Shown: positions 2,408 to 60,038, numbered from the stretch's first letter. The stretch is 64,000 bases of DNA from Peribacillus frigoritolerans (GCA_030562215.1 JAUPFL010000001.1:124001-188000), one strand, 5' to 3'. Numbers and translations: made by a program. The notes: generated from the sequence alone by a model not told the origin.

Positions 2408-2470
2408 AAACTAACCTGCCTCGTTAGTTCCATTAGAAAAAGCTGCCTTAAAGACAGCTCCGTGGAATAA
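2408..2470 (+). repeat. Array repeat, left and middle hairpins only
   Basis: The left hairpin (CTAAC, CTGCCTC loop, GTTAG) and middle hairpin AGCTGCC..GACAGCT are present; the right hairpin is replaced by cgtggaataagg. This is the first copy seen in the window. Confidence 0.85.
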
Positions 2471-2473
2471 GGG

Positions 2474-2839
2474 TTAATGATTTTTATTTGCATACATTCT
2501 TGCCATTGTCGAAGGTGAAAATGTAATTCTATATTTCCCTTCAAGTTCTTTCTTCATTTTTTTCGTTAAAGTCAATCCTTGTTTATTGTGTTCTTCTTCA
2601 AGTTCAATCCCATTAGGAAGCAATGTATCTTCATCCCAATCAATCCATTCACCATACCTATTTACCCATTCAATCAATTCATTTGTTAACGTATTTGAAA
2701 TCGGAATGTCCTCTATATCCAAGTTACAACCACATTGATTGCACCATATAGGGTCCGCCCCAACATCACCTTCAACTCTTAACTCATATGTTTCTTTTTG
2801 TTCACAAAGACATTCCATATTATTTTCCGACTCCTCCAC
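2474..2839 (-). CDS. Hypothetical zinc-ribbon-like protein, 121 aa
   Basis: An acidic 121-residue protein. An N-terminal CLCEQ and a CNQCGC motif near residue 35 could bind zinc. The rest is charged, with TLTKKMKKELEGKYRITFSPS near the C-terminus. No name can be given. A repeat copy lies on each side (2408-2470 and 2880-2933), so it is a one-gene cassette, antiparallel to the repeats. Its stop is four bases from the downstream repeat. The start may be the M at residue 8 instead of residue 1. Confidence 0.7.
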   Translation of the reverse strand: MEESENNMECLCEQKETYELRVEGDVGADPIWCNQCGCNLDIEDIPISNTLTNELIEWVNRYGEWIDWDEDTLLPNGIELEEEHNKQGLTLTKKMKKELEGKYRITFSPSTMARMYANKNH

Positions 2840-2879
2840 TACCCGCTTTTTTATTATATTTTACATGACTTTTGTTAAA

Positions 2880-2933
2880 GTAACCTGTCCTGTTAGTTCA
2901 ATAAAGAAAAGCGATTCTTATTAAAGAATCGCT
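2880..2933 (+). repeat. Array repeat variant with alternative middle hairpin
   Basis: The left hairpin (loop CTGTCCT) is followed by a different middle stem, GCGATTCTT/AAGAATCGC, also found at 51841-51918. No right hairpin is present. Confidence 0.75.
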
Positions 2934-3032
2934 GAGTTTGTAGACAAATATCATCCGAACTTACGAATAGAATGAAAAGGTGAAATGGGATTAAGATTGA
3001 ATATGCAGAAGAATCTCCTCATTGAGGGAACC

Positions 3033-3296
3033 TCATGTCTTTTCCCTTATTCCTTTTCGTTCATGTAAAATTTCTTGGATGATTTCAATATGAACAAAAG
3101 ACCATGATTTTTCATGAAAGTGAAGAAACACACTTATGGAAAGAATGGAAATATAAATTAAAATGAAGACGACCCAAAGCAAACTCCCATCTTTAAAAAG
3201 GAACTCTTGCAATTGATTTGAAAATAGAAGAAAAAGCCAAGGTCCGGAGGATATTATAATAGGAATGATCCCCGATCCGTTTTTCTCTTTTATCAT
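3033..3296 (-). CDS. Hypothetical membrane protein, 87 aa
   Basis: Two hydrophobic segments (about residues 9-26 and 38-60) separate a short basic N-terminus from a charged C-terminal tail. The family is not recognised. It lies on the minus strand after the 2880 repeat and has no clear RBS, so the start is uncertain. Confidence 0.5.
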   Translation of the reverse strand: MIKEKNGSGIIPIIISSGPWLFLLFSNQLQEFLFKDGSLLWVVFILIYISILSISVFLHFHEKSWSFVHIEIIQEILHERKGIREKT

Positions 3297-3611
3297 ACAA
3301 TAATAAATTTTTTTAACGTATCGCTATCAATGGAACTATAAAAGTTTTGAATTTTTTCCACTTCTATTAGTTTCTTCATATCTTTGAAAGATTGGTCTTT
3401 GTATGATGCTTTTTTAATTGAAGATAAATTTTATGAGCATCTCCCCGTAATGAAAACAATATCTGATCTTTCCCCCTCCAAAAAACTCCTTGCTAAAAGG
3501 CTTTGTAATAATCCGTATTTTTATGTAGTCTTTGTCTTTTATCTTAGCTTGAGGGGGATGACAAACGAATTATCGTCCATACTATTACCATCAGCTCGTA
3601 TATGTAAACCT
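3297..3611. other. About 315 bp with no supportable gene
   Basis: Open frames here lack an RBS and recognisable motifs. The region ends in a strong hairpin at 3612-3652. It may be the degraded remains of a gene, but I cannot identify one. Confidence 0.4.
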
Positions 3612-3652
3612 AAAAGGCCATAATCATCACTCCCGATAATTATGGCCTTTTG
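3612..3652. terminator. Strong bidirectional terminator hairpin
   Basis: A 13-bp perfect stem AAAAGGCCATAAT / ATTATGGCCTTTT has an A run on one side and a T run on the other, so it could stop transcription from either direction. Confidence 0.8.
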
Positions 3653-3733
3653 TTAACGACAACGTGGGGTACAGTGACCTCACTATTATGTGGTGGCCAT
3701 CCCCTTTGGATTGCCTCTCATTCTTAAACGGTT

Positions 3734-6371: not shown

Positions 6372-6436
6372 TTCCCCTTTAGTTGCATAAGAAGGCAGCT
6401 CCGATCCTCAGCTAACACACCTGTTAGTTCATTAAG
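6372..6436 (+). repeat. Array repeat, left part degraded
   Basis: The left part is reduced to cccctttagttgcataag. The middle stem is only half present (GGCAGCTCCGATCCTCAG), and the right hairpin is CTAACACACCTGTTAGTTCATTAAG-like and complete. Confidence 0.75.
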
Positions 6437-14750: not shown

Positions 14751-14784
14751 CTTCTTCAACAACCTGCACCTTTAGTTCCATAAG
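14751..14784 (+). repeat. Degenerate left half of the array repeat
   Basis: The sequence ttcaacaacctgcacctttagttccataag aligns with the left hairpin and its 3' tail. Middle and right hairpins are absent. Confidence 0.55.
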
Positions 14785-16149: not shown

Positions 16150-17046
16150 CTAATTGTTGGGCAGTTGGATGCCACGCCAGCCGCTTACATCGCATTGGCC
16201 ATATCCATTATCACCCACAGCTACCACCGTGCCGTCCGATTTAAGACCGACGGTATGGGCACAACCCGCCGCAATCGCCACAATATCGCGCCAATCACTT
16301 ACATTACATTGGCCATACTCATTCCAACCCACAGCCGCCACAGTACCGTCTGATTTAAGACCGATTGTATGATTACTACCCACCGCTATCGCCATAATAC
16401 CGTGCCAGCCGCTTACATCACATTGGTCATTTTTATTCCAACCCACAGCTACCACCGTGCCGTCCGATTTAAGACCGATTGTATGAAGATAACCCGCCGC
16501 GACCGCTACAATATCGCTCCAGCCGCTTACATTGCATTGGAGATACCGATTATTACCCACAGCCTTCACCGTTCCGTCCAATTTAAGACCTATGGTATGC
16601 CAGTCACCCGCCGCGACCGCCACAATATCATGCCAGCCGCTTACATTGCATTCAACTTCATTATTTCGGCCCACAGCTACCACCGTGCCATCCGATTTAA
16701 GACCAATGGTACGACGCCAACCTGCCGCGACCGCTACAATATCGCGCCAGTCGTTTACATCACATTGGTTATGCTTATTCCAACCCACAGCCGCCATAGT
16801 ACTGTCAGATTTAAGACCGATTGTATGAGCATTCCCCGTGTTCGTCGCCATATGAACATTACCAGCCGCGACCGCCACAATATCGCTCCAGCCGCTTACA
16901 TCACATTGGCCATATTTATTATCACCCACAGCTTTCACCGTTCCGTCAGATTTAAGCCCAACGGTATGACGACGCCCTGCCGCTATGGTATCTTTAGGCC
17001 ACCGTTTCACCTTTAACAGCGCTTCTTTCGGTGAAATGTAATCCAT
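16150..17046 (-). CDS. RCC1-like seven-repeat beta-propeller protein
   Basis: 298 residues made almost wholly of seven repeats of about 40 residues, built on IVAVAAG..HTIGLKSDGTVVAVG..QCDVSGW. This is the RCC1/alpha-tubulin-suppressor pattern, and seven units would close one propeller. Unit 2 is nine residues longer (an insert of about MATNTGNAH). No signal peptide is visible. The RBS AAGGAGG precedes the ATG. The head is KEALLKVKRWPKD and the tail ILPNN-like. Its ligand is unknown; RCC1 folds in bacteria usually bind proteins or carbohydrates. It lies just downstream of an array repeat. Confidence 0.85.
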   Translation of the reverse strand: MDYISPKEALLKVKRWPKDTIAAGRRHTVGLKSDGTVKAVGDNKYGQCDVSGWSDIVAVAAGNVHMATNTGNAHTIGLKSDSTMAAVGWNKHNQCDVNDWRDIVAVAAGWRRTIGLKSDGTVVAVGRNNEVECNVSGWHDIVAVAAGDWHTIGLKLDGTVKAVGNNRYLQCNVSGWSDIVAVAAGYLHTIGLKSDGTVVAVGWNKNDQCDVSGWHGIMAIAVGSNHTIGLKSDGTVAAVGWNEYGQCNVSDWRDIVAIAAGCAHTVGLKSDGTVVAVGDNGYGQCDVSGWRGIQLPNN

Positions 17047-17103
17047 CTTTTACCTCCTTGAAAACAAGACCTATTTTATTATTGTATCACTTTTGCTTGT
17101 TAT

Positions 17104-17190
17104 ACTGACCTGCCCCTTTAGTTCCATAAAAAAAGTGCTGCCTTAAAGACAGCTCCAATCTTCAGCTAAAGCAACTGTTAGTTCATTAAG
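17104..17190 (+). repeat. Array repeat, complete
   Basis: Three hairpins are present: left loop CTGCCCC with a TTTAG arm, middle AGTGCTGCC..GACAGCT, and right CTAAAGCAACTGTTAG with a TTCATTAAG tail. Its middle is shared with the copy at 17962, and the two bracket ccdA. Confidence 0.9.
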
Positions 17191-17192
17191 AC

Positions 17193-17899
17193 TTAGAAAC
17201 CAGTAAAGCCACCAAATACATTATTTGTGAGAAAAGATGTGATATTGGTCATCCAATCAAAAAACAAGACACCCCCCATTAGAATTGTTAAATAACCACC
17301 AATTTGAGTTATTTTGCGGTTATATTTTTTATCCATCCTGATTTTCCTATAAAAAATGACATTGTTAAGAACGGTAAGGAAAACCCAAGTATATAAGCAA
17401 TCATATATACTAAACCCTGGCCAGTCGATAAACCAAGTGTTATAACGGCACCTAATATTGGTCCTATGCAAGGAGTCCAACCAGCAGCATATCCTATTCC
17501 AATTAGAATAGAACCTATATAACCAGACGGGCGATTTTTAAAATTTATTTTCCTGTCCATCATTAAGAATTTTGGTTGAAAAATCCCAACAATCATTAAA
17601 CCAAAAATAATTATCAAAATAGCCCCTACCTGTCTAATTAAATCAATATATTCATAAAAGAGATCGTAAATAAAGGAAGTTGATAACCCTAATATTACAA
17701 AAATAATAGAAAATCCAATCAAAAAGAATAAGGTATGAAGCATTGGTCTGCGGTTTAATTTGTTATTATCTTCTTTTAATTCACTAACTGATAATCCTGT
17801 AATATATGATAAAAACGCAGGATATAAGGGCAAACAGCAAGGAGATATAAAAGAAAGTACCCCTGCACCAAAAGATAAAAAATATTTAAGTCTCCCAAT
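17193..17899 (-). CDS. ccdA: CcdA thiol-disulfide membrane transporter, one frameshift
   Basis: CcdA carries reducing equivalents across the membrane for cytochrome c maturation and spore synthesis. Landmarks are GAGVLSFISPCCLPLYPAFLS (redox cysteine), GYAAGWTPCIGPILGA (second redox cysteine) and a GGFTGF end. An A6 run near 17315 breaks the frame before TQIGGYLTILMG. The reading frame upstream has no ATG/GTG/TTG; ATT at 17899, eight bases after GGAGGAAA, gives IGRLKYFLSFGAG and is the probable (rare) start. The stop abuts the 17104 repeat, and the gene is bracketed by two near-identical repeats. Confidence 0.85.
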
Positions 17900-17961: not shown

Positions 17962-18045
17962 TTAAACTACTCTGCCCCGTTAGTTCCATAAAAAAAGTGC
18001 TGCCTTAAAGACAGCTCCAATCTTCAGCTACGCACCCGTTAGTTA
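17962..18045 (+). repeat. Array repeat, complete
   Basis: The left hairpin has loop CTGCCCC, the middle is AGTGCTGCC..GACAGCT, and the right is CTACGCACCCGTTAGTT. It follows the 5' end of ccdA. Confidence 0.9.
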
Positions 18046-18718: not shown

Positions 18719-19402
18719 TCACCTTTCCCGATACACCTGAAATTCATTATCAGGATTGATGATTATTTTATTGTTATTTATTAATGTAATTTCAAGAGGA
18801 AATATGGCAGATGTTTTATCGGAAAATATCCACCTTCTACCAGGTTGGGCTAATATGATAAATATTCCATTCCTTCTTTCACCCATGAAATTAAGGGATT
18901 TTTTACTTATTGTATTATTGTCACGCTCGTACACACCAATTTCATTTAATTTTTCGCTCACACCTATAGTGTCTTCTACAATTAAACCTATTTCACTTAT
19001 GTTTAAAATGCTTTTAACCGAAAAAGGCTCCATACTATCTTCAGCAATTTCATATCTTGAAATAAATTCTACTATATTACCAGAAGGATCATAGAAGTAT
19101 AGAGCATGGGCAGGTAAATGAGCAAAATCAGCTTCATCTACCCCATCTTCAACCAGTAAACTTACTCTTTCTTTTGCCCATGATTTTGCCTCATTAAATT
19201 TGTTAGCCGGTATGTTAAAAGCAAAATGATAATAGGGGTCACCTTTTACTTCTTTTGTTGTAAACTCAAATTCACCTGTACCAACAGCAATTCGAAAGCT
19301 ATTCTTATCTTCATTAATGAGAGAAAAACCTAACGTTCCAATATAGAAATTTTTCATTTGCATTAAACTTTTAGTCTGTAAAACAATCGATTTAATTTCC
19401 AT
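18719..19402 (-). CDS. VOC (glyoxalase-like) family protein, 227 aa
   Basis: The N-terminal half carries a VOC module: SIVLQTKSLMQMKNFYIGTLG, YHFAFNIP and HALYFYDPSGNIVEFISR. The C-terminal half (SVKSILNISEIGLIVEDT) begins a second, weaker module. VOC proteins coordinate a metal through histidine and glutamate pairs and act as lyases, dioxygenases or drug-binding proteins; the substrate here is unknown. The ATG at 19402 follows GGGAGGTG. Confidence 0.75.
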   Translation of the reverse strand: MEIKSIVLQTKSLMQMKNFYIGTLGFSLINEDKNSFRIAVGTGEFEFTTKEVKGDPYYHFAFNIPANKFNEAKSWAKERVSLLVEDGVDEADFAHLPAHALYFYDPSGNIVEFISRYEIAEDSMEPFSVKSILNISEIGLIVEDTIGVSEKLNEIGVYERDNNTISKKSLNFMGERRNGIFIILAQPGRRWIFSDKTSAIFPLEITLINNNKIIINPDNEFQVYRER

Positions 19403-19556
19403 TGATAATAACACCTCCCTTGCATATCTAATTATGTGAGTAAGCCATTTATAAAACGTACTGACATTCTGATTAAATCATAAATATCATTTTAAGTAAA
19501 TTTATTCTATTTTTACCTATATATACTAAACAACCTTATTGTTGCTGTTGAAATCT

Positions 19557-23669: not shown

Positions 23670-23751
23670 TTAAACTAACCTGCCCCGTTAGTTCCATACA
23701 GAAAAGCTGCCTTAAAGACAGCTCCGAACTTCAGCTAACGCACCCGTTATC
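23670..23751 (+). repeat. Array repeat, complete
   Basis: Left TAAC-CTGCCCC-GTTAGTT, middle AGCTGCC..GACAGCT and right CTAACGCACCCGTTA. The tail is truncated. Confidence 0.9.
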
Positions 23752-23765
23752 ATTAACAATTGAGT

Positions 23766-23994: not shown

Positions 23995-24083
23995 GAACTA
24001 TCCAGCCCCGATAGTTGCACAAAGAAAGAGCTGCTTTAAAGGCAGCTCTGATCTTCAGCTAACGCACCTGTTAGTAAAATAAG
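23995..24083 (+). repeat. Array repeat, complete, with compensatory arm change
   Basis: The left hairpin is ACTATC-CAGCCC-CGATAGT: both arms carry the change, preserving pairing. The middle is AGCTGCTTTAAAGGCAGCT (perfect) and the right CTAACGCACCTGTTAG. Confidence 0.9.
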
Positions 24084-24181
24084 TTCAGCCAAATATTTCT
24101 GGTTGAAACCATCAATTCACCGTCGGTCCACCATTTGGCGAATAATTTAGCATATATCCCACCGCCATCATACTTCTTATT
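24076..24181 (-). pseudogene. Short coding remnant after the lipoprotein gene
   Basis: A minus-strand frame reads KKYDGGGIYAKLFAKWWTDG, then RNIWLNLFY and stops near the repeat tail. It overlaps the end of the 24177 gene in a different frame. It may be that gene's true C-terminus after an indel. Confidence 0.35.
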
Positions 24182-33110: not shown

Positions 33111-33116
33111 TCAATC

Positions 33117-37726: not shown

Positions 37727-37761
37727 AAAATTCCCTCCAAGATCACTAATCATTAGAAAGT

Positions 37762-39365: not shown

Positions 39366-39507
39366 AATTCAAGCCTGCCCTGATAGTTAATTAAAAGTAT
39401 TTGTTTGGTGCTTTTTACTTGAGGCCGAATGTATGATTTGTATAAGAATCATACGTTCAAAAGGCCGCCATTTGGCGGCCTTCTTATGGCGCTAACGCAC
39501 CCGTTAG
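39366..39507 (+). repeat. Array repeat with long foreign middle
   Basis: Left hairpin AAGCCTGCCCTGATAG-like (39366-39393), then about 95 bp with a GAATGTATGATT stem and a GGCCGCC/GGCGGCC stem, then right hairpin CTAACGCACCCGTTAG (39492-39507), directly joined to the 378-bp element. Confidence 0.75.
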
Positions 39508-39885
39508 CCATCCATGAAGCGCAAAAATCAGCGCTTCACCACAGAGAATGAAAATTGGTCTCTATGTCGATAATGTTTTAATGGCTGGCGAAGAAGGTCG
39601 TTGAACTATGGTGCCTTTGAGCCCATCCGTTAGTCTGACTCCGACGACCACGGTGTACCACCGACTGTCGCGCCCTTTATGGGTAGCACTCATGGGAGAT
39701 TAATCCTTTTTTGGTCGTCGCGCTAGCCTCTACTTAATTTGCTATGATTGGAGGTTTTTGTTTAACGATTGACCAAACTCAATCAGATTACTCATAAGGC
39801 TTGCCTTTTTTTAAAAAGCGTTTTTACTGGGTCTATTTTGTTGTGCTTTTTTCTGGATTTTGAGCTTTTTTAATTTTCATGGGAG
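39508..39885 (+). mobile_element. ORF-less structured element, copy A, 378 bp
   Basis: This is one of three copies (others 51070 and 60039). It begins CCATCCATGAAGCGC with a GAAGCGC/GCGCTTC hairpin and ends TTTTCATGGGAG; the ends share an inverted CCATGAA/TTCATGG. It lies exactly after GTTAG of the right hairpin and before tttaag, with no target duplication. Inside, CGACGACC (39642) pairs with GGTCGTCG (39713) and CGGTG with CACCG, suggesting a folded RNA. No ORF is present. It could be a non-autonomous IS200/IS605-like element or an unknown structured RNA. Confidence 0.7.
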
Positions 39886-39900
39886 TTTAAGTACATCACT

Positions 39901-40668: not shown

Positions 40669-40748
40669 CTAACCTGCCCCTTTAGCATAAAGAAAAAGCT
40701 GCCTTAAAGACAGCTCCTGATCTTCAACTAACTCACCCGTTGTTTTAA
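40669..40748 (+). repeat. Array repeat, complete
   Basis: Left CCTAACCTGCCCCTTTAG, middle AGCTGCC..GACAGCT, right CTAACTCACCCGTTG. Confidence 0.88.
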
Positions 40749-40787: not shown

Positions 40788-40831
40788 CACGAACCTGCCC
40801 ATTAGCCCAAGAAGCGACTACTCTTCTTGGG
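40788..40831 (+). repeat. Array hairpin variant
   Basis: ACGAACCTGCCCATTAG followed by a different stem, GCCCAAGAAG..CTTCTTGGGC. Confidence 0.6.
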
Positions 40832-40968: not shown

Positions 40969-41424
40969 TTACTTAATTTCATAGTTCAGCCAAACTGCCT
41001 TTTGTGCCCCAATTTTGTCATATAACGATTGGGCAGTAAGATTATCATGTGCTGTTTCCCAAATCATATGAGAATAGTCATTCTCTCTAATATAAGTGAC
41101 ACAGGACTGAAGTAGTTTTTCACCAATTTTTTGTCCTCTTACATCAGGTTTTACAAATAGATCATGAAGGAAAGCCATTCGTTTCACTTCTAATGTATTA
41201 AAAGTAAAATATAAAGTGGAAAAACCAACTAAGTGATGCGGTTCCTTTTCTACAACAAACTGGATACCTTCATAGGGATTTTCAAGTAAATGATTGATCA
41301 ATCTTTTGAGTGAATCATCACTTGGACGAGGACACTTGTAGAAATCAACGATGTATTGGTTCATTAATTCGAGAAGTTGTGGGATATCATGTTTTGCAGC
41401 AGTCCTAATATTTACTGTTTCCAT
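40969..41424 (-). CDS. GNAT-family N-acetyltransferase, 151 aa
   Basis: A full GNAT fold: VNIRTAAKHDIPQLLELMNQ, VGFSTLYFTFNTLEVKRMAF, the acetyl-CoA strand LHDLFVKPDVRGQKIGEKLL and the C-terminal DNLTAQSLYDKIGAQKAVWL. The substrate is unknown. The RBS GGGAGGAG precedes the ATG. It lies between array repeats. Confidence 0.88.
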   Translation of the reverse strand: METVNIRTAAKHDIPQLLELMNQYIVDFYKCPRPSDDSLKRLINHLLENPYEGIQFVVEKEPHHLVGFSTLYFTFNTLEVKRMAFLHDLFVKPDVRGQKIGEKLLQSCVTYIRENDYSHMIWETAHDNLTAQSLYDKIGAQKAVWLNYEIK

Positions 41425-41520: not shown

Positions 41521-41575
41521 TGAACTAAACTGCCCCGATAGTTCCATAAGACAAAGATGTACCAAAGCAACTCCC
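41521..41575 (+). repeat. Array repeat, left hairpin and altered middle
   Basis: GAACTAAACTGCCCCGATAG with a middle of accaaagcaactc type, also seen at 42483-42563. Confidence 0.75.
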
Positions 41576-42107: not shown

Positions 42108-42195
42108 GTAACTAACCTGCCCCGTTACTACCATAAGAAAAAGCTGCCTTAAAGACAGCTCAGATCTTCATCTAACACACCCGTTAGTTCATTAA
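42108..42195 (+). repeat. Array repeat, complete; supplies a stop codon
   Basis: Left TAACTAACCTGCCCCGTTAC, middle AGCTGCC..GACAGCT, right CTAACACACCCGTTAG plus TTCATTAA. The TTA in its GTTAG arm is the stop of the next gene. Confidence 0.9.
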
Positions 42196-42441
42196 CTTTT
42201 CATACGATAAAATTACAATTCCACATATTACAGATACTCCTAAAAATGATAATACATAAAAATAAGGATGCGTAACACTCCCAAACTCTACCTCGTTTTG
42301 AAGGGTTGCTACTGTATCCCATGTACTCTCAATATCTGGTTTATAGTTTTTTGTTTTTATATAACCGACTAACATCATAACTACTACATAGATTACATGA
42401 ATTGAAATTGAACCTATAATTGCTTGAAGAACCACCTTCAT
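42184..42441 (-). CDS. Hypothetical membrane protein, 85 aa; C-terminus encoded by the repeat
   Basis: ATG 42441 after GAGGTGCA gives MKVVLQAIIGSISIHVIYVV. A second span is YFYVLSFLGVSVICGIVIL. The last residues, LMN and the stop, are read from the repeat tail and its GTTAG arm (42184-42195). Another cassette, the DUF1232 gene at 43863, ends with the same LMN-stop for the same reason. Function unknown. Confidence 0.65.
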   Translation of the reverse strand: MKVVLQAIIGSISIHVIYVVVMMLVGYIKTKNYKPDIESTWDTVATLQNEVEFGSVTHPYFYVLSFLGVSVICGIVILSYEKLMN

Positions 42442-42482
42442 ATTGCACCTCATTTTTTTACTCATTTTACCATATTTAGCGA

Positions 42483-42563
42483 CAGAACTGCCCCTTTAGC
42501 TCCATAAGAAAAAAGAGCTGCCAAAGCAACTCCCTTATTGAAGTAAAGCACCCGTTAATTGAA
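42483..42563 (+). repeat. Array repeat with altered middle
   Basis: Left ACAGAACTGCCCCTTTAG, middle GAGCTGCCAAAGCAACTC, right TAAAGCACCCGTTAATT. Confidence 0.8.
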
Positions 42564-43253: not shown

Positions 43254-43284
43254 CTTAGTGAACTAACGCACCCGTTAGTTTAAG
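43254..43284 (+). repeat. Array repeat, right hairpin only; left end of a duplicated cassette
   Basis: GTGAACTAACGCACCCGTTAG plus TTTAAGTAG. Homology with 53690 onward begins at its tail. Confidence 0.85.
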
Positions 43285-43378: not shown

Positions 43379-43711
43379 TTATTTTTTTTTAGTTAACATA
43401 TAGCTTTGTTTTATCATTTCGTAAATGTCTTCCTTTGGTACAGTACCGTCAAGAATTATCGAATTCCAATGGTCCTTATTAAGATGAAATGCCGGAACTA
43501 CCGAATGGTAAATCTGACGCCAATAATTCAAAAAACCGGGTTCACACTTAACATTAATCCAATTATGGCCATCTTTTTCAAATATCCACGCAAACACTTT
43601 CTTGTTATCTATATGTCGCATTAACGTCCAATTCTTATTACGAAATGGATAATCTTCATATGTATTACCCATTCCTAAACAATAACCGATAGCTTCCTCT
43701 CTATTTTTCAT
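43379..43711 (-). CDS. MmcQ/YjbR-family protein, copy 1, 110 aa
   Basis: MKNREEAIGYCLGMGNTYED, YPFRNKNWTLMRHIDNKKVF, AWIFEKDGHNWINVKCEPGF, VVPAFHLNKDHWNSIILDG and VPKEDIYEMIKQSYMLTKKK. This is the compact YjbR/MmcQ CyaY-like fold, possibly DNA-binding. A second copy at 53768-54115 is about 95% identical, including 100 bp downstream. The duplication ends lie in the flanking repeats. Confidence 0.85.
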   Translation of the reverse strand: MKNREEAIGYCLGMGNTYEDYPFRNKNWTLMRHIDNKKVFAWIFEKDGHNWINVKCEPGFLNYWRQIYHSVVPAFHLNKDHWNSIILDGTVPKEDIYEMIKQSYMLTKKK

Positions 43712-43786
43712 TGTTAACCTCTTCTCTAACATAATAACTTGCTAGTTAAAGCTACATCCTTAATTTTAACCCCTGGACACTTTATT

Positions 43787-43875
43787 ACACTAACCTACCC
43801 CTATAGTTGCATAAAGAAAAAGCTGCCATAAAGACAGCTCCGAACTTCTGCTAACGCACCCGTTAGTTCATTAAG
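43787..43875 (+). repeat. Array repeat, complete; right end of the duplicated cassette; supplies a stop codon
   Basis: Left CACTAACCTACCCCTATAG, middle AGCTGCCATAAAGACAGCT, right CTAACGCACCCGTTAG plus TTCATTAAG. The TTA in the right arm ends the DUF1232 gene. Confidence 0.9.
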
Positions 43876-44246
43876 CGATAAATATTAATAATAGCCCATA
43901 TTATGATTAAGCCCCAAATCATTACGATTATTGTGCCGACTATCCAATTCTTCGGCTTACCATTTTTCATCATTTCTTCTGCCTTAACTTCACAGTCGGT
44001 TAATACACTCTTTGGTATCATCTTTAATGCGATCATTATCCCTATTGGAACCAGAATTACATCGTCTAGGTAGCCTAGAATGGGGATAAAATCAGGTATT
44101 AGGTCTATGGGACTGAATGCATAAGCTACAACACAAGCCGTATATACTTTTGCATACCAAGGCACCCGTACATCTTTACAAGCCAAATAAAGTATAAAAA
44201 TCTGTCGTTTTAGACTCCTCGCCCAGTTCTTAATTTTATTAAACAT
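43863..44246 (-). CDS. DUF1232 (YkvA-like) membrane protein, 127 aa
   Basis: ATG 44246 after AGGAGAAA gives MFNKIKNWARSLKRQIFILY. The DUF1232 core is VPWYAKVYTACVVAYAFSPI, DLIPDFIPILGYLDDVILV. A C-terminal span (VGTIIVMIWGLIIIWAIINI) follows. The last residues LMN and the stop are encoded by the repeat. Function is unknown. Confidence 0.85.
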   Translation of the reverse strand: MFNKIKNWARSLKRQIFILYLACKDVRVPWYAKVYTACVVAYAFSPIDLIPDFIPILGYLDDVILVPIGIMIALKMIPKSVLTDCEVKAEEMMKNGKPKNWIVGTIIVMIWGLIIIWAIINIYRLMN

Positions 44247-44318
44247 TTTTTCTCCTATAATAGTTAAGATTTTATTTTCATTATATAACAAAATAAGATT
44301 TACAAAGGATTGTTATCG

Positions 44319-44403
44319 CACTAACCTGCCCCCATAGTTGCATAAAGAAAGAGCTGCCTTAAAGACAGCTCTGATCTTCAACTAACACACCTGTTGGCTG
44401 AAG
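44319..44403 (+). repeat. Array repeat, complete
   Basis: Left CACTAACCTGCCCCCATAG, middle AGCTGCC..GACAGCT, right CTAACACACCTGTTGG with tail ctgaag. Confidence 0.9.
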
Positions 44404-44409: not shown

Positions 44410-44943
44410 TTACTTATTACTTTCAAGTAATGAATAGACATAGGTATCGTGAGCTTCACCATTTTGATACATATATTTCTTCAAAACTCCCTCTTTTTGA
44501 AAACCAATTTTAGTTAGTAAATTATTAGATGCTTCATTGTCAATAAATACAACAGCACCTATACGAGTTAAATCCATAACATCAAAGCCATATGAAAGAA
44601 CTTTAGATATTGCTTCTGAAGTATATCCTTTTCTCCACTGCTCTGGATGGATTTCATACCCTATTTCTGCTCTTTTATGTTTAGGTAACCAAGCATTAAA
44701 GCCAATTGTTCCAATTATTCCTTTGGTCTCCTTTCTCTCAATCCCCCAGCGTATGCCTCTTTTTTCATCGTAGTTTTTTGAAAAGAAGTCAACGAACCTC
44801 TCTGCTTGCTCTATACTCTGTAATGTTTCTTGTCCATAATAACGTGTTACATTGTTGTTAGAAAAACAAGCAAAAATACCTTCTGCATCCTCTTTTGTTA
44901 TTTCTCTTAGCATTAGTCTTTCTGTCTCTAATATTGGAAACAT
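44410..44943 (-). CDS. RimJ/RimL-type GNAT acetyltransferase, 177 aa
   Basis: FPILETERLMLREITKEDAE, GTIGFNAWLPKHKRAEIGYE, IHPEQWRKGYTSEAISKVLS and NEASNNLLTKIGFQKEGVLK follow the RimJ/RimL order, including the YEIHPEQWRKGY acetyl-CoA site. Targets in this group are protein N-termini or small amines. It is a one-gene cassette whose stop is seven bases from the repeat. Confidence 0.9.
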   Translation of the reverse strand: MFPILETERLMLREITKEDAEGIFACFSNNNVTRYYGQETLQSIEQAERFVDFFSKNYDEKRGIRWGIERKETKGIIGTIGFNAWLPKHKRAEIGYEIHPEQWRKGYTSEAISKVLSYGFDVMDLTRIGAVVFIDNEASNNLLTKIGFQKEGVLKKYMYQNGEAHDTYVYSLLESNK

Positions 44944-45011: not shown

Positions 45012-45046
45012 CTTAATGAACTAACCTGCCCCGTTAGTGCCATAAG
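45012..45046 (+). repeat. Array repeat, left hairpin with flanks
   Basis: CTTAATGAACTAACCTGCCC plus CGTTAGTGCCATAAG; the middle and right are absent. Confidence 0.82.
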
Positions 45047-51043: not shown

Positions 51044-51069
51044 TCTTAATCAACTAACGCACCCGTTAG
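51044..51069 (+). repeat. Array repeat, right hairpin, joined to element copy B
   Basis: CTTAATCAACTAACGCACCC plus GTTAG; the structured element begins at the next base. Confidence 0.85.
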
Positions 51070-51450
51070 CCATCCATGAAGCGCAAAAAATCAGCGCTTC
51101 ACCACAGAGAATGAAAATGGTTCAGAACCGTCAATACTAATTCTATGGCTGGAAGAGGAAGGTCGATGAACTATGGTGCGTTAGAGCCCATCCGTTAGTC
51201 TGACTCCAACGACCACGTGTACCACCGACTGTCGCGCCCTTTTTGGGTAGCACTCATGGAAGATTAATCCTTTTTTGGTCGTCGCGCTAGCCTCTACTTA
51301 ATTTGCTTTGATTGGAGGTTTTTGTTTAACGATTGACCAAACTCAATCAGATCACTCATTAGGCTCAGCCTTTTTTTAAAAAGCGTTTTTACTGGGTCTA
51401 TTTTGTTGTGATTTTTTCTGGATTTTGAGCTTTTTTAATTTTCATGGGAG
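51070..51450 (+). mobile_element. ORF-less structured element, copy B, 381 bp
   Basis: The ends match copies A and C (CCATCCATGAAG ... TTTTCATGGGAG). The stretch around 51118-51175 differs more from A and C than the rest, while the pairing blocks CGACCACG..GGTCGTCG and GCCCAT..TGGGTAG are kept. It follows GTTAG and precedes tttaataacc. Its last bases encode the C-terminus and stop of the gene at 51442. Confidence 0.7.
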
Positions 51451-51768
51451 TTTAATAACCAAACTTAATTTTTTTATTTTTTCGAAATAGAAACCTGTCC
51501 CATTTTCTTGTGGAACAAACCCTTGTTGAGCTGAACTATTTTCTACCATATTTTGCTCTTCTGCTGTTTTAACTGTGGTAACATCTTTTCCTTCAGCTAC
51601 CATACCTTCTCTACGATCTTGATCCTCTCTAGTAACAAGTTTATATGTATCTGTTTGTTTTGAGGAAACTTCTGCAGATGCTTCTGTCTTTTGCAAGTCT
51701 TTCGCAAAACCGATTGATACTGCAAAAACTCCTGCAAAACCAAGGGTTAAAACTAATTTCCCTTTCAT
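51442..51768 (-). CDS. Small secreted or anchored protein, 108 aa; 3' end in element copy B
   Basis: ATG 51768 gives MKGKLVLTLGFAGVFAVSIG, a signal or anchor. The mature part is acidic and Gln-rich (KTEASAEVSSKQTDTYKLVT, AEEQNMVENSSAQQGFVPQ). The stop TGA at 51442 and the final codons come from the inserted element, so the original tail may have been replaced. No family recognised. Confidence 0.6.
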   Translation of the reverse strand: MKGKLVLTLGFAGVFAVSIGFAKDLQKTEASAEVSSKQTDTYKLVTREDQDRREGMVAEGKDVTTVKTAEEQNMVENSSAQQGFVPQENGTGFYFEKIKKLSLVIKLP

Positions 51769-51840: not shown

Positions 51841-51918
51841 TTCTTCAACTAAACTGCCCCGTTAGTTCATTAAAAAAAGCGATTCTTATTAAAGAATCGC
51901 GCCCCGTTAGTTAAATAA
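51841..51918 (+). repeat. Array repeat with the GCGATTCTT middle
   Basis: Left TTCAACTAAACTGCCCCG, middle GCGATTCTTATTAAAGAATCGC-type stem, right GCCCCGTTAG plus ttaaataa. Same middle as 2880-2933. Confidence 0.82.
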
Positions 51919-51930: not shown

Positions 51931-52281
51931 TTACAACTCACTGTTACTTCCTTTTATGTCAATACTCGCCTTTTCAAAACATATATTAACTGTCCGTTCG
52001 TTTGAACGAGTACGATGCATTGTATTAGCAGGAACAGTAAATATTTCACCTGGTTTCAAAGAAACTGTTTCATTATTTTCTAAGTCTATGAAAAGTTCAC
52101 CTTCTAATACATAAAATAATTCATCGCAATCGTCGTGTTTATGCCAGTGAAATTCTCCATTTATCACAGCTATTCTAAGAGCGTGGTCATTTACTTCACT
52201 TACGATAAAGTTTGTGTAGTCCTTTTGGTCTTGTATTAATTCGTGTAGGTTAAAAACTTCTAATTGTCCCTTTTTTTGCAT
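51931..52281 (-). CDS. Cupin-domain protein, 116 aa
   Basis: ATG 52281 after AAAGGAGAAAG gives MQKKGQLEVFNLHELIQDQK. Cupin motif 1 is FHWHKHDDCDELFYVLEGE and motif 2 PGEIFTVPANTMHRTRS; the His/Glu/His metal ligands are present. It is a small single-domain cupin, perhaps a sugar isomerase or dioxygenase relative; substrate unknown. It is a one-gene cassette. Confidence 0.85.
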   Translation of the reverse strand: MQKKGQLEVFNLHELIQDQKDYTNFIVSEVNDHALRIAVINGEFHWHKHDDCDELFYVLEGELFIDLENNETVSLKPGEIFTVPANTMHRTRSNERTVNICFEKASIDIKGSNSEL

Positions 52282-52352
52282 ACTCTTTCTCCTTTGAAAA
52301 TCTAATCTTCTTAAATAGACTAAATTCGACAATAGAACGAAATAACCTTTTT

Positions 52353-52416
52353 TCTTCAACTGACCGTTCATTAAGCCTTATTCCATTAAATGGCCCAATT
52401 GTTACAAACAACACTC
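52353..52416 (+). repeat. Secondary repeat leading into an array repeat
   Basis: The sequence ctgaccgttcattaagcc, then ttattccattaaatggccc and aattgtt, recurs at 56823-56892. In both places it runs straight into a left array hairpin. Confidence 0.75.
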
Positions 52417-52504
52417 TTAAACTAAACTGCCCCGATAGTTCCATAAAGAAAAAGCTGCCTTAAAGACAGCTCGGATCTTAAGCTAACGTACCTGTTAGTT
52501 CAAG
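52417..52504 (+). repeat. Array repeat, complete; supplies a stop codon
   Basis: Left AAACTAAACTGCCCCGATAG, middle AGCTGCC..GACAGCT, right CTAACGTACCTGTTAG plus ttcaag. The TCA of its tail is the stop TGA of the DUF3888 gene. Confidence 0.9.
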
Positions 52505-52930: not shown

Positions 52931-53019
52931 CTTAATGAACTAAACTGCCCCGTTAGTTACATAAGGAAATGCTGCCTAAAAGACCACTTGACCTTCAGCT
53001 AACTCCACCGTTAGTTGAA
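52931..53019 (+). repeat. Array repeat, diverged
   Basis: Left GAACTAAACTGCCCCGTTAG intact, middle degraded (ATGCTGCCTAAAAGACCACT), right CTAACTCCACCGTTAG plus ttgaa. Confidence 0.82.
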
Positions 53020-53606: not shown

Positions 53607-53690
53607 TCTACTATCCTGCCCCTAAAATCCCATTAGAAAAAGAGCTGCTAACCAGCTCTGATATTGAAGTAACGCACCCATTACTTTAAG
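53607..53690 (+). repeat. Array repeat with altered middle; left end of duplicated cassette
   Basis: Left ACTATCCTGCCCCTAAAA, middle AGAGCTGCTAACCAGCTCT, right TAACGCACCCATTAC plus TTTAAGTAG, where homology to the first YjbR cassette starts. Confidence 0.82.
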
Positions 53691-54192: not shown

Positions 54193-54222
54193 GCACTAAC
54201 CTGCCCCTTTAGTTCCATAAGA
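54193..54222 (+). repeat. Array repeat, left hairpin; right end of duplicated cassette
   Basis: GCACTAACCTGCCCCTTTAG plus ttccataag. Confidence 0.82.
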
Positions 54223-54553
54223 AGTAAACAACTTTATTATTTTTATATAACTATATTGTAAATTAAACATCTATATTATAACTGCATAAAACGTTGATAA
54301 TGTTGCTTTGAAATAAAGTTTGATTAAAAACACCTCTTAAACCCGTATTTTTCGGTAAATAAGAAGAATCCATTTTGAAAAAAATCGATCAAAATGGATT
54401 TTTATCTAGCAGTTTTAAGTTATGGTTTTATAAAAATGTCTAATCATTTTCTACCTTCGATCTTCAACAATCACGCCCGTTTTGTTTAATAAGGAGATGG
54501 TAAGTTATTAGTTAATTTAGAAGGACAATTTCACGGTCCTTCGGTTGGTGGGT
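54223..54553. other. Gene-free region with repeat-like hairpins
   Basis: It contains a stem tccattttg/caaaatgga near 54371-54401 and a right-hairpin-like cttcaacaatcacgcccg at 54463-54490. No ORF. Confidence 0.45.
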
Positions 54554-56822: not shown

Positions 56823-56923
56823 AAACTGACCGTTCATTAAGCCTTATTCCATTAAATGGCCCAATTGTTGAACAAAGACAAACAACATTCTTAAACTAAA
56901 CTGCCCCTATAGTTGCATAAGAT
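56823..56923 (+). repeat. Secondary repeat plus left array hairpin
   Basis: The segment 56823-56892 repeats 52353-52416. Then AAACTAAACTGCCCCTATAG plus ttgcataag (56893-56923), the left hairpin. Confidence 0.78.
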
Positions 56924-57979: not shown

Positions 57980-58628
57980 TGTTGGAAGTGGAACAGAAAT
58001 ATATATGACCTTATTGGCCATGCTGACGGCAACGGTATTAAGTCTAGTCATTACAAAAGTATATCAATTAACCTTTACTGGAGCGCGGTATTCCCAAGCA
58101 TTTGTTCATACGATTATTATGATGAGTGTAATTGTATCTGTTGTCATGAATGTGATTAGTGGAAATGCAGGCATAGCTTTTGGATTATTTGCTGTATTTT
58201 CACTCATCCGGTTTAGAAGTGCAGTAACAGATGCGAAAGACATCGCTTATATCTTTTTTGGTCTATGTGTAGGGATGACAAGTGGACTGTTTCATTTCGA
58301 TCTAGCCATCGTCTTAACCTTATTTGCAAGTTTAATATTTTACCTACTATACAAATTTCAGTATGGAAAAGGAAAAGATACACAAGTTTTAAAAGTTACC
58401 GTTCCTGAGAACTTGAATTATCAAAATTTGCTTGATGACATATTTGAAAAATATACAGAGAGTCATATTCTATGTCAGGTAGAAACGACCAATTTGGGTA
58501 CAATGATTTTATATACCTATATTATTCGAAGTAAGAATGCGACAAAAGACAAAGAATTGCTTGACCGCATTCGAGAAAAAAACGCGAACTTAAAAGTATC
58601 CCTAACTTATTTAGATATAGAGAAATAA
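57945..58628 (+). CDS. DUF4956 membrane protein, 227 aa
   Basis: After a short head (MDFLNQFFSTSDVG) come four spans: MTLLAMLTATVLSLVITKVY, IIMMSVIVSVVMNVISGNAG, IAYIFFGLCVGMTSGLFHF and LAIVLTLFASLIFYLLYKF. GLFAVFSLIRFRSAVTDAKD is the family signature. A cytosolic domain of about 85 residues ends the protein. It overlaps the VTC gene; the two products likely act together at the membrane. Confidence 0.85.
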   Translation: MDFLNQFFSTSDVGSGTEIYMTLLAMLTATVLSLVITKVYQLTFTGARYSQAFVHTIIMMSVIVSVVMNVISGNAGIAFGLFAVFSLIRFRSAVTDAKDIAYIFFGLCVGMTSGLFHFDLAIVLTLFASLIFYLLYKFQYGKGKDTQVLKVTVPENLNYQNLLDDIFEKYTESHILCQVETTNLGTMILYTYIIRSKNATKDKELLDRIREKNANLKVSLTYLDIEK

Positions 58629-58631
58629 AAG

Positions 58632-58712
58632 ACGTACTTCTTCTGTCCAGGAAAGTACTTCCTTTCATTGGTACATTTTCTAATCTGGATTGCCTTGATG
58701 GCAATCCTTTAA
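58632..58712 (+). terminator. Two small hairpins after the DUF4956 gene
   Basis: GTACTT..AAAGTAC at 58632-58656 and GATTGCC/GGCAATC at 58688-58706, the latter followed by ctttaatcttt. Confidence 0.55.
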
Positions 58713-59061
58713 TCTTTATCATTTCTTTGAAATAAGACCACTTAGCCTTGTTCTTAATTTCAAATATAAGAAACAGCACTGTGGTAGAGATTTAGTCATT
58801 CATGTACGAAGACACAAAGTTAAGTACATTGGGGACATGAATTTGAGTACATAGAGTTATTAATCCACTCAAAACCGCACCAATTCAATCTCTAACTATT
58901 TTGAGATACAAAATCGAGTACATTATAAACAGTACAGTCATATAAACTTATCTGTAAACACAAAGGGGAAGGCAATATCTATACCCTCCCCTTTTCGAAC
59001 ACAACTTATTTTTTTAATCTTCTTGATTATTATATAAAAAGATTAATCATTTTTTGTGATC
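58713..59061. other. Gene-free stretch ending in the extended repeat segment
   Basis: A hairpin AAAGGGGA..TCCCCTTT-type lies at 58962-58996. From about 59010, aaaaagattaatcattttttgtgatcc repeats the end of the segments at 33640 and 47955. Confidence 0.5.
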
Positions 59062-59092
59062 CTTAATCAACTAACGCACCCGTTAGTTTAAG
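59062..59092 (+). repeat. Array repeat, right hairpin only
   Basis: TTAATCAACTAACGCACCCG plus TTAGTTTAAG. Confidence 0.85.
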
Positions 59093-59126
59093 TACAATAT
59101 CACAAACTTCACTTACTGCGTAAGTA

Positions 59127-59945
59127 TTAGTTTTGGAACTCTTCAATTCTATCCAACCATTCATTTAATAGAGTACTAAAAAGTTGTGGTTGTTCAATTT
59201 GTAAATTGTGACCTGCTATATCCAATACAGCAAATGTTCCTCGCGGATACTTGTTTACTATGTCAAGAGCATCTTTATATCCAACTGAAGAGTCTTGTCT
59301 TCCTAACAGGAATACACTGGGCTTAATAAAATCAGACTGGTCAATCTTAAAAGAAAATCCATATTTATTCTTAACCTTATTTAGAAACTTTTCATCTCCA
59401 ATTTTACAACCACTTAGAATTTCTTTGTTGTACCTTAACCATGTGTACTCATCAAGTACAATGTTGTTATTTCTAAAATCTTCTAATTCATCCTTTGATA
59501 AATTTCCAATAAACTTTTCATCCATTCTCAATATTTTATGTTTCTCAACTGTTCTATTTTCTGGAAGAGGAATAATAACAGGACATATAAATGCTGCACC
59601 GAGTATTTGTTCTTGATGCTTCTCAATAATGCCTCTAGCTATATAGCCACCGTAAGATTCCCCAGCAATTACGTACTCTTGGTTAGGAATTACAGCTTGA
59701 ATAAAATCTAAAACAGCATTCAGCATTTCATCAGAACTACTTATTTCATTATATTCTTTTGTTAATCCCATTCCAGGTAGGTCAATATAAATACGTCGCC
59801 ACCCCTCCCTCTTGGTAAATATAGGCTCCATACAACCACTCATTAATCGATGGTCCGGAGAATAACCGTGTATCATTAAAATTGGTTTACCTTCTCCTAA
59901 ATCTTCATAATATATTTCGGCTTGGCGAACTTTGCAATATGCCAT
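59127..59945 (-). CDS. Alpha/beta hydrolase, 272 aa
   Basis: ATG 59945 after AGAAAGGAT gives MAYCKVRQAEIYYEDLGEGK. PILMIHGYSPDHRLM is the oxyanion region, VIAGESYGGYIARGI the nucleophile elbow (Ser in GESYGG), VFLLGRQDSSVGY holds the acid and LDIAGHNLQIEQP the histidine. It resembles small epoxide-hydrolase/lipase-type enzymes; substrate unknown. It is a one-gene cassette after repeat 59062. Confidence 0.87.
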   Translation of the reverse strand: MAYCKVRQAEIYYEDLGEGKPILMIHGYSPDHRLMSGCMEPIFTKREGWRRIYIDLPGMGLTKEYNEISSSDEMLNAVLDFIQAVIPNQEYVIAGESYGGYIARGIIEKHQEQILGAAFICPVIIPLPENRTVEKHKILRMDEKFIGNLSKDELEDFRNNNIVLDEYTWLRYNKEILSGCKIGDEKFLNKVKNKYGFSFKIDQSDFIKPSVFLLGRQDSSVGYKDALDIVNKYPRGTFAVLDIAGHNLQIEQPQLFSTLLNEWLDRIEEFQN

Positions 59946-60017
59946 ATTAATCCTTCTTTCTATAAAAATCATTTTAACTAACAATACCTATTTTCTTTTT
60001 GTTTCTTCAATTCCTTC

Positions 60018-60038
60018 TTCAACTAAACTCCCCGTTAG
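60018..60038 (+). repeat. Array repeat, left-hairpin type, joined to element copy C
   Basis: TTCAACTAAACTCCCCGTTAG. Here the structured element sits in a left-type hairpin, still after GTTAG. Confidence 0.8.

What the first reader, a model, noticed from the sequence alone, without database searches (positions are those of the whole stretch)
2408..60038. Gene-cassette array with attC-like three-hairpin repeats in a Bacillus-type chromosome
About 45 full or partial copies of one repeat (about 85 bp when complete) separate mostly single genes across 58 kb. About 18 copies are complete. Left hairpin AACTAAC-CTGCCCC-GTTAGTT and right hairpin CTAAC-GCACCC-GTTAG flank a variable middle stem. The left and right units can also pair with each other: CTAAC with the distal GTTAG, and the inner GTTAG with the inner CTAAC. 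This gives a long folded site with two box pairs, a spacer and a terminal stem, as in integron attC. AACTAAC and GTTAGTT match RYYYAAC and GTTRRRY at 6 of 7 positions. Seen: sequence and layout. Known: attC architecture. Inferred: cassette recombination. No tyrosine integrase gene is in the window. Alternatives are REP/MITE-like repeats or dispersed terminators.
Basis: partly seen in the sequence, partly recalled or inferred. Interest (0 to 1): 0.95.

Follow-up and report, generated by a model that had tools for sequence, protein, structure and literature searches.

The report
Integron-like gene cassettes in Peribacillus
Soil bacteria of the Bacillus family carry long strings of mostly single, unrelated genes separated by short one-way repeats, which are likely swapped in and out by a dedicated DNA recombinase, an integron-like gene library in a group where true integrons are very rare.

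Summary
On the cassette strand of the window (a Peribacillus chromosome) a matrix core sites, 35 A and 33 B, 38 of them paired into 19 complete ~80-bp units. A core is a near-palindrome, CTTnTTnAACTAAC-[GGGTGC (A) or GGGGCAG (B)]-GTTAGTTnAAnAAG; mostly single accessory genes lie between. In 21 array regions of 9 Peribacillus genomes, 426 B and 304 A strict matches point one way within each region, 0 the other. Homologous cassettes in different contexts are related between the B spacer and the A spacer and nearly unrelated outside: crossovers fall in the spacers. One cassette is absent in one species and present in another. No genome of 36 reaches the IntI cut-off. A different, Xer-like tyrosine recombinase (279 aa), usually framed like a cassette, has such cores nearby in 24 of 27 loci, against 4 of 71 control recombinase loci. 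The window's own genome shows no close relative of it, so its arrays are integrase-less. Verdict: an integron-like cassette system, not an integron by IntI; attC folding unsupported. Activity of the enzyme on the cores is inferred, not shown.

The parts
17103..17183 (-). complete A-stem-B unit
   Evidence: weight-matrix call
17965..18042 (-). A-stem-B unit, not among the 19: B good, A half degenerate
23673..23752 (-). complete A-stem-B unit
23996..24076 (-). complete A-stem-B unit
24760..24838 (-). complete A-stem-B unit
30036..30116 (-). complete A-stem-B unit
30677..30756 (-). complete A-stem-B unit, followed by a second A core at 30795-30814
31094..31174 (-). complete A-stem-B unit
31554..31631 (-). 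A-stem-B unit with a different stem sequence and A spacer GGGCGC
32102..32181 (-). complete A-stem-B unit
33037..33117 (-). A-stem-B unit, A outer arm degenerate
34762..34841 (-). complete A-stem-B unit
35425..35504 (-). complete A-stem-B unit
42110..42189 (-). complete A-stem-B unit
42481..42560 (-). complete A-stem-B unit
43788..43868 (-). complete A-stem-B unit
44319..44399 (-). complete A-stem-B unit
52420..52500 (-). complete A-stem-B unit
52938..53016 (-). complete A-stem-B unit
53609..53686 (-). complete A-stem-B unit, diverged
2409..2429 (-). B core, lone
2878..2898 (-). B core, lone
6410..6429 (-). A core, lone
14757..14777 (-). B core, lone, diverged
26190..26210 (-). B core, lone
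26725..26744 (-). A core, lone, diverged
29069..29088 (-). A core, lone
30795..30814 (-). A core
32680..32700 (-). B core, lone
33805..33824 (-). A core, lone
35647..35666 (-). A core of a second unit whose B half (35587) is truncated
36259..36278 (-). A core, lone, diverged
37034..37053 (-). A core, lone
37966..37986 (-). B core, lone, perfect inner palindrome
40726..40745 (-). A core; B partner at 40667 degenerate
40788..40807 (-). weak core call (score 15.9)
41523..41543 (-). B core, lone
43261..43280 (-). A core, lone
45019..45039 (-). B core, lone
51847..51867 (-). B core
51892..51912 (-). core-like site of a variant class (GATTCTT right arm)
54194..54214 (-). B core, lone
54466..54486 (-). 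weak variant core (score 18.7)
56894..56914 (-). B core, lone
59069..59088 (-). A core, lone
63248..63267 (-). weak variant core (score 14.3)
39490..39890 (-). A core (39490-39509) with a transposase-less relic of an IS110-family element inserted in it
   Evidence: coordinates converted from the oriented array
51050..51455 (-). A core (51052-51071) with IS110-family relic
60015..60431 (-). core (60021-60040) with IS110-family relic
16150..17046 (-). cassette gene: RCC1-repeat protein
   Evidence: Pfam
17309..17833 (-). cassette gene: no Pfam match
18719..19414 (-). glyoxalase/TxDE-type gene in the array
24177..24578 (-). cassette gene: no Pfam match
24934..26114 (-). two-gene cassette: PadR-type regulator and a second protein
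29321..29914 (-). cassette gene: TetR-type regulator
30158..30559 (-). cassette gene: glyoxalase/bleomycin-resistance fold
31190..31495 (-). cassette gene: no Pfam match
31663..32055 (-). cassette gene: no Pfam match
32203..32670 (-). cassette gene: NUDIX hydrolase
33117..33530 (-). cassette gene: no Pfam match
33827..34684 (-). cassette gene: alpha/beta hydrolase
34858..35400 (-). cassette gene: weakly AAA/kinase-like, all matches under the Pfam cut-offs
35708..36109 (-). cassette gene: no Pfam match
37070..37798 (-). two-gene cassette: pair of small multidrug-resistance-family (SMR) transporters
40969..41424 (-). cassette gene: GNAT acetyltransferase
42184..42465 (-). cassette gene: no Pfam match
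43379..43732 (-). cassette gene: YjbR family
43863..44291 (-). cassette gene: DUF1232
44410..44943 (-). cassette gene: GNAT acetyltransferase
51931..52371 (-). cassette gene: cupin
59127..59984 (-). cassette gene: alpha/beta hydrolase

Best explanation
The window is part of a chromosomal gene-cassette array in a Peribacillus genome, in which mostly single accessory genes are separated by one-way core sites and are likely moved one at a time by a dedicated Xer-like tyrosine recombinase that would cross over in the sites' spacers. A core site has two 14-bp arms forming an inverted repeat and a 6- or 7-bp asymmetric spacer, GGGTGC (A) or GGGGCAG (B); the spacer gives the site its direction (shown by sequence). 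The recombinase would bind the arms and exchange strands in the spacer (inferred). The usual unit between two genes is A, then a terminator stem of about 40 bp, then B, so the commonest gene cassette runs from the B spacer to the next A spacer. Homology between copies of a cassette begins and ends there within a few bases (shown). Recombination between two direct sites of the same spacer type would release a circle that can enter another array at the same type of site (inferred); B-by-B events carry the downstream A and stem along, A-by-A events the upstream stem and B, which would explain why stems are nearly unlinked to both neighbours. The likely enzyme is the 279-aa recombinase family of L216, which is usually framed like a cassette (typically a core about 100 bp before the start and one about 30 bp after the stop) and sits in or next to such arrays. 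The window's own genome has lost it or never had it, so its arrays are now static or depend on an enzyme from elsewhere (inferred).
For: One-way sites: 426 B and 304 A in the common direction of their region, 0 reversed, 21 regions of 9 Peribacillus genomes (own included), 1.35 Mb. Intervals of 300-1500 bp between sites: 375 of 470 hold exactly one ORF of at least 70 aa (44 none); the longest ORF is co-directional in 387 of 426. Functions are unrelated accessory ones (30 ORFs scanned). Cassettes of about 90% identity occur in other orders and neighbourhoods in other species. Homology limits: for 134 pairs of homologous genes with B upstream and different upstream neighbours, excess identity is about 0 left of the B spacer and high right of it; for 109 pairs with A downstream it is high up to the A left arm and small (mostly 0-0.1) from mid-spacer on; the same at lone B (n=35) and lone A (n=26) sites, with a softer edge. 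Single-cassette insertion: G030 gene-A-stem-B-gene against G026 with one extra gene-A-stem-B, junctions in the B spacer. Recombinase: at least one core within up to 1.5 kb in 24 of 27 loci against 4 of 71 control recombinase loci, 0 in shuffled DNA; of 19 loci measured, 16 have a core 97-185 bp before the start and 16 one 15-141 bp after the stop (15 of these within 55); R138, K162/K165, H228, R231, H254, Y263 invariant in an alignment of 11 (9 of the family, 2 Xer; catalytic roles from general knowledge). Other spacers, uniform within an array: on plasmid CP053689 13 of 13 minus-strand cores read TGATGC (7) or TGGCAG (6) with the same arms, as expected if spacers must match between partners while arms bind the enzyme.
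Against: No experiment and no excised circle was seen. The recombinase family has no match above XerC level in the window's genome (E<=1e-25) nor in several array-rich congeners such as G030, G031 and G034, and many copies elsewhere are fragments or have stops. Three of 27 recombinase loci show no core. G050 and G095 have 10 model hits each without a listed close relative (list cut). A second candidate, a XerA-like 279-aa core gene (L115/L138), is at least 90% conserved in 20 of 35 congeners, all with 20 or more model hits, and in the own genome (there frame-broken); against it, it is missing from G040 and G041, which have arrays, and 12 of 12 stretches with its main copy hold no core. But two stretches with a 55% paralog of it do hold cores, and on plasmid pSHB26 such a paralog lies beside the L216-type gene. 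Serine recombinases also lie by arrays of the own genome: L134 has four cores nearby, L137 one, a C2 fragment lies in an array, while four loci of G026, G031 and G034 have none. Of 13 automatically found one-ORF insertion candidates, one has the full A-B pattern on both sides. On CP053689 three further cores were called on the other strand (two with the palindromic spacer GCATGC, one GTATGC). Some genes in the window are on the other strand or lie in intervals without clear sites.
Confidence: 0.82

Rival explanations
1. A true integron (or CALIN): folded single-stranded attC sites recombined by an IntI integrase.
For: Single-gene cassettes in one orientation, functions like integron cassettes, paired core sites with unequal spacers, core ends 6 of 7 like RYYYAAC/GTTRRRY (consensus recalled), units fold better than shuffles.
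Against: No match over the IntI model cut-off in any of 36 genomes; array recombinase scores 104.4 of 265 bits needed; no excess of compensatory pairs; the long fold is not the usual prediction; A as well as B is a crossover; lone cores also act as limits.
Confidence: 0.06
2. Homologous recombination between the ~80-bp repeats shuffles genes; the repeats are only dispersed terminators with palindromic edges.
For: Terminator-like stems in 270 of 302 connectors; repeats long enough for some RecA exchange; no L216-type recombinase in the own genome.
Against: The limits of homology lie within a few bases of the spacers on both sides, without a gradient through the stem; also at cores without a detected partner; other arrays keep the arms but carry other, internally uniform spacers; sites accompany one recombinase family.
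Confidence: 0.06
3. REP/MITE-like elements spread by a transposase (for example the IS110 family found inserted in A cores).
For: IS110-family elements and relics sit inside A cores.
Against: One orientation per array, 0 of 730 reversed; the IS110 elements interrupt the cores and so use them as targets; genes between the cores move as units bounded by the spacers.
Confidence: 0.02
4. Same cassette mechanism, but the acting enzyme is another recombinase: XerC/XerD or the XerA-like L115 family (as XerCD for pdif modules), or a serine recombinase found by some arrays.
For: Several array-rich genomes lack the L216 family; L115 is at least 90% conserved in 20 congeners, all with 20 or more model hits; a 55% paralog of it lies in two core-bearing stretches and beside the L216-type gene on pSHB26; serine recombinase genes lie by arrays of the own genome.
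Against: The main copy of L115 has no cores nearby in 12 of 12 stretches, is absent from G040 and G041 and present (62-66%) in site-poor G003, G020 and G022; XerC/XerD loci among the controls have no cores nearby; four serine-recombinase loci of G026, G031 and G034 have none.
Confidence: 0.13

Closest known systems
Integrons / CALIN (IntI + attC; IntegronFinder definition)
   Same: Long one-way arrays of mostly single accessory genes, a site between genes, gain and loss of one cassette, integrase-less arrays common, functions such as GNAT, glyoxalase, NUDIX, SMR.
   Different: Recombinase not IntI; palindromic core pairs rather than a conserved fold; crossover in both cores of the pair; stem exchangeable; recombinase itself framed like a cassette; no B. 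subtilis-type LexA box (consensus recalled) in 19 upstream regions.
Xer recombinases / pdif modules (pdif recalled, no call)
   Same: Tyrosine recombinase of XerC/XerD type, short core with two arms and 6-7 bp spacer, genes as modules between cores.
   Different: Own recombinase about 30% identical to XerC/XerD; 14-bp near-symmetric arms unlike dif (recalled); dozens of cores in one orientation.
IS1111-attC insertion sequences (recalled) and IS110 elements in REP sites (recalled)
   Same: IS110-family elements insert inside the repeated site.
   Different: Here the IS is a passenger of the array, not its mover.
NCBIfam NF040815 XerA / 'integron integrase' label
   Same: L216 scores 213.7, just under the 220 cut-off; some relatives carry this product name.
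   Different: The label is a name only; the IntI models are far from met.

Membership tests
Integron | IntI-type integrase in the genome (TIGR02249 over cut-off) | tested here: not met
   0 of 36 genomes of the genus; array recombinase 104.4 bits against 265
Integron | IntI-specific insertion in the catalytic domain | tested here: inconclusive
   points to absence: L216 residue 186 aligns to IntI profile position 180, but residue 200 to position 239 of solved IntI4, an offset change of about 45 (two different references); protein is 279 aa
Integron | attC recognised by a conserved fold | tested here: inconclusive
   No compensatory excess; mean fold z -2.9/-2.2, outer arms paired in 27/80 top and 10/80 bottom folds; no Rfam match; the attC model of IntegronFinder was not available
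Integron | site travels with the upstream gene, one crossover point | tested here: not met
   stem nearly unlinked to the upstream gene; limits at A as well as B; one event does carry A-stem-B along
Integron | array of single-gene cassettes in one orientation | tested here: met
Integron | integrase at the proximal end with attI | tested here: inconclusive
   recombinase near the start of an array in G041, beside sites at a contig end in G080, opposite to the cassettes on a Sporosarcina and an 'Arthrobacter' plasmid, within arrays elsewhere; no attI identified
Integron | promoterless cassettes read from Pc | tested here: inconclusive
   no excess of sigma-70-like promoters over shuffled (94 against 105 of 263); terminators between genes
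Integron | SOS control of the integrase (LexA box) | tested here: not met
   best match to the B. subtilis-type box (recalled) has 3-5 mismatches of 10 in 19 of 27 loci examined
Tyrosine site-specific recombinase system | catalytic R, K, HxxR, H, Y | tested here: met
   invariant in 11 sequences
Tyrosine site-specific recombinase system | crossover inside a short spacer between inverted arms | tested here: met
   homology limits
Tyrosine site-specific recombinase system | strand exchange by the enzyme at these sites | not testable with these tools
   bench test needed
REP/MITE | dispersed copies in both orientations | tested here: not met
   0 of 730 reversed
pdif modules (XerC/XerD) | dif-like 11-6-11 sites used by host XerCD | not tested
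   no dif comparison was run; difference of arms is recalled

The most novel reading that the evidence does not exclude
Bacillaceae own a second, independent integron-like system: a Xer-derived integrase that travels as a cassette and builds chromosomal and plasmid libraries of hundreds of single-gene cassettes through paired double-stranded cores, whose spacers act as array-specific addresses.
Probability: 0.75. Interest if true: 0.95.

Novelty: new variant of a known kind. Interest (0 to 1): 0.9.

Why it matters
Integrons are the textbook route by which bacteria stockpile and shuffle single genes, and Firmicutes are described as almost without them: one complete integron (Limnochorda pilosa) and a few CALIN in IntegronFinder 2.0 (PMC9024848, passages read). 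If this reading holds, common soil Bacillaceae have a comparable engine that IntI-based searches miss. In the 21 array regions sampled, 385 ORFs with cores on both sides fall into 287 families, 216 of them singletons (60% identity), so a large pool of unexplored genes is involved. It also gives a clean test bed for how a Xer-type enzyme could become a cassette integrase without folded single-stranded sites.

Tried and rejected
Phage-type integrases beside two other arrays of the genome (C1:1309579 and C1:2361426) looked like integron integrases by position, but their best relatives among the recombinases at hand are phage/ICE-type and they are broken; dropped. The XerA-like L115 protein was first taken as the enzyme; its core location without cores and its absence from G040/G041 argued against it, though a paralog of it does lie by cores. 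Serine recombinases (loci scanned): in the own genome L134 has four cores nearby, L137 one, and a broken C2 copy and one at C1:3582622 lie by model hits; the four loci of G026, G031 and G034 have none; I take those by arrays as passengers, untested. Pairing schemes gave no covariation excess. A promoter search between B and the start codon gave no excess. Literature: eight searches over open PMC papers listed none whose title or abstract start describes such arrays in Bacillaceae; passages of PMC9024848 and PMC9345347 were read. Subscription papers and preprints were not covered. One search's output was cut, so its middle part was not seen.

Rows dropped before counts: one search used 134 of 139 B pairs and 109 of 115 A pairs (those with non-homologous neighbours) of 722 homologous ORF pairs; one search treated L261-L263 (35-38% identity) as controls and left out L127, L216, L230-L233 because they are the array recombinase again; some control loci overlap one another (for example L009/L013, L010/L014). 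One search measured 19 of the 27 recombinase loci (eight, mostly fragments or broken copies, left out) and folded 80 of 255 units. One search crashed halfway; its first part is cited, the rest was rerun. On re-checking I lowered the main confidence from 0.84 to 0.82 because of the serine recombinases and the L115 paralogs by cores.

Full report
WHAT IS THERE. The window is G000:C1:124001-188000 of a 5.4-Mb genome. The genus is Peribacillus, judged by named records that carry the same unit exactly (P. simplex, P. frigoritolerans and two 'Bacillus' sp.). Read in the direction of most genes (minus strand of the window) the order is: gene, A core, terminator stem, B core, next gene. The core is CTTnTTnAACTAAC + spacer + GTTAGTTnAAnAAG; A has GGGTGC, B has GGGGCAG. 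The window has 35 A and 33 B calls and 19 complete units. Chance gives 0.42 left boxes where 20 are found.

HOW WIDE IT IS. In two other genera (G041, G040) the arrays have a similar layout with partly different spacers.

CASSETTES. Across 21 array regions of 9 Peribacillus genomes (own included; 1.35 Mb) there are 570 B and 529 A calls; in 256 of 309 close A-B pairs the distance is 58-60 bp; 375 of 470 intervals of 300-1500 bp contain exactly one ORF of at least 70 aa, and the longest ORF runs with the site in 387 of 426. Of 385 ORFs with sites on both sides, 243 are framed B...A, 69 B...B, 43 A...A and 30 A...B; they form 287 families, 216 singletons. Thirty ORFs of the window were scanned with Pfam: GNAT, glyoxalase, NUDIX, SMR, alpha/beta hydrolase, cupin, TetR, PadR, YjbR and others, while 10 of 30 had no match at E<=0.01. 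This is the mix known from integron cassettes (general knowledge).

WHERE THE CUTS ARE. Blocks of 0.4-3 kb at about 90% identity recur in other orders and next to other genes in other species, though patches of collinearity exist too, the longest a 10-kb stretch shared with G030 that holds no cores. For homologous genes with different neighbours, I compared identity at each site position with that of unrelated site pairs. Upstream (134 pairs) the excess is about nil up to base 4 of the B core, small within the spacer and strong from the right arm on. Downstream (109 pairs) it is strong through the A left arm and small, mostly 0-0.1, from mid-spacer on; the stem is nearly unlinked to either neighbour. 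The same holds at cores without a detected partner, with a softer edge (35 B and 26 A pairs). In G030 two genes are separated by one A-stem-B unit; in G026 a third gene with its own A-stem-B lies between them, with the junctions in the B spacer. It is the one clear case among 13 automatic candidates. These are the marks of site-specific recombination in the spacers; homologous recombination should leave a gradient through the stem (general knowledge).

THE ENZYME. No genome of 36 in the genus reaches the IntI cut-off. In G041, whose contig length equals that of Peribacillus alkalitolerans, an intact 279-aa tyrosine recombinase (L216) lies near the start of an array. Close relatives (at least 50% identity, whole or broken) are listed in 18 of 35 congeners, 6 of 7 other genomes of the family and 5 of 58 further genomes (list cut at about E=3e-32). 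A protein search gave 1601 matches at E<=1e-20; the 120 listed are 63-100% identical, those with names are from Peribacillus, Cytobacillus, Niallia, Neobacillus, Metabacillus, Oceanobacillus and similar genera, and the unlisted rest may include ordinary Xer proteins. Of 27 loci, 24 have a core within up to 1.5 kb, against 4 of 71 loci of other tyrosine recombinases, mostly from the same array-rich genomes, and none in shuffled DNA. Of 19 loci measured, 16 have a core 97-185 bp before the start and 16 one 15-141 bp after the stop, in either orientation to the gene: the recombinase is framed like a cassette. It is 29% identical to XerC and XerD of the genus and keeps the catalytic residues. On plasmids it accompanies cassettes too: Sporosarcina psychrophila pSP10-266k (gene opposite to the cassettes, 9 of 9 cores in one orientation) and the plasmid of 'Arthrobacter citreus' NEB 577, where 13 of 13 minus-strand cores read TGATGC or TGGCAG with unchanged arms and three more were called on the other strand. 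Spacers that differ between arrays but are uniform within one fit the rule that tyrosine recombinases need matching overlaps (general knowledge).

OTHER CANDIDATES. A XerA-like 279-aa protein (L115/L138) is at least 90% conserved in 20 of 35 congeners, all with 20 or more model hits, but its main locus holds no core in 12 of 12 stretches, G040 and G041 lack it, and site-poor genomes have relatives of it. A 55% paralog does lie in two core-bearing stretches and beside the L216-type gene on pSHB26, so a role is not excluded. Serine recombinases lie by some arrays of the own genome, not in the four loci of G026, G031 and G034 that were scanned.

THE OWN GENOME. Neither the window nor its genome shows the L216 family above XerC level, and several array-rich congeners (G030, G031, G034 and others) lack it as well, while G026 and G040 hold broken copies inside arrays. 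The window is thus best seen as an integrase-less array, comparable to CALIN. The assembly has frame breaks (for example a XerD-like gene; completeness 87%), so small losses should be read with care.

WHAT IS INFERRED. Binding to the arms, cutting in the spacer, excision as circles and entry into other arrays are inferred from sequence. Whether the full A-stem-B unit is more active than a lone core, and whether a folded strand plays a part, is open: units fold better than shuffles (mean z -2.9 and -2.2), but the attC-like pairing is the minority prediction and shows no covariation excess.

STANDING. By the IntI criterion this is not an integron; in behaviour it is integron-like. No description was found in the eight literature searches named in Tried and rejected. 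I rate it a new variant of the gene-cassette kind, with a fair case for a separate system.

Noticed in passing
window 39490-39890, 51050-51455, 60015-60431; whole copies in L042-L048 and L049-L053: IS110-family elements (449- and 406-aa open frames) insert inside A cores; the window has three transposase-less relics of one of them.
   Followed up: partly
G031:C1:280585-281421 (L138); paralogs in L156, L157, L266: A XerA-like 279-aa recombinase, conserved in most of the genus, sits in a core locus without sites; a 55% paralog lies by cores and, on a P. simplex plasmid, beside the array recombinase. Its job is unknown.
   Followed up: partly
L134 (G000:C1:2858291-2858710), L029 12598-12902: Serine recombinase genes lie inside arrays of the own genome; perhaps passengers.
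   Followed up: partly
window 46-671 and 4596-5113; G000:C2:1010651-1011164: Several genes (by eye a proC-like and a GNAT-like one; a XerD-like one) are split by frame breaks, which suggests assembly errors (completeness 87%).
   Followed up: no
window 51892, 54466, 63248 and G031/G034 arrays: A further site class with GGGCGC or GGGCCA spacers and different arms (CAGCAATC/GATTCTTGAATAAG) is mixed into the arrays; perhaps a third address.
   Followed up: no
window 16150-17046: The RCC1-repeat cassette has strong internal tandem repeats; a G030 array also holds tandem repeats.
   Followed up: no
L267 2101-4836 (NZ_CP146247.1): A plasmid array of Sporosarcina holds NUDIX, merA and merR between an A and a B core, so metal-resistance genes occur in such arrays.
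   Followed up: no
L268 (CP053689.1): The plasmid recorded as Arthrobacter citreus (Actinomycetota) carries the recombinase and cores otherwise seen in Bacillaceae and kin; the organism name may be wrong.
   Followed up: no
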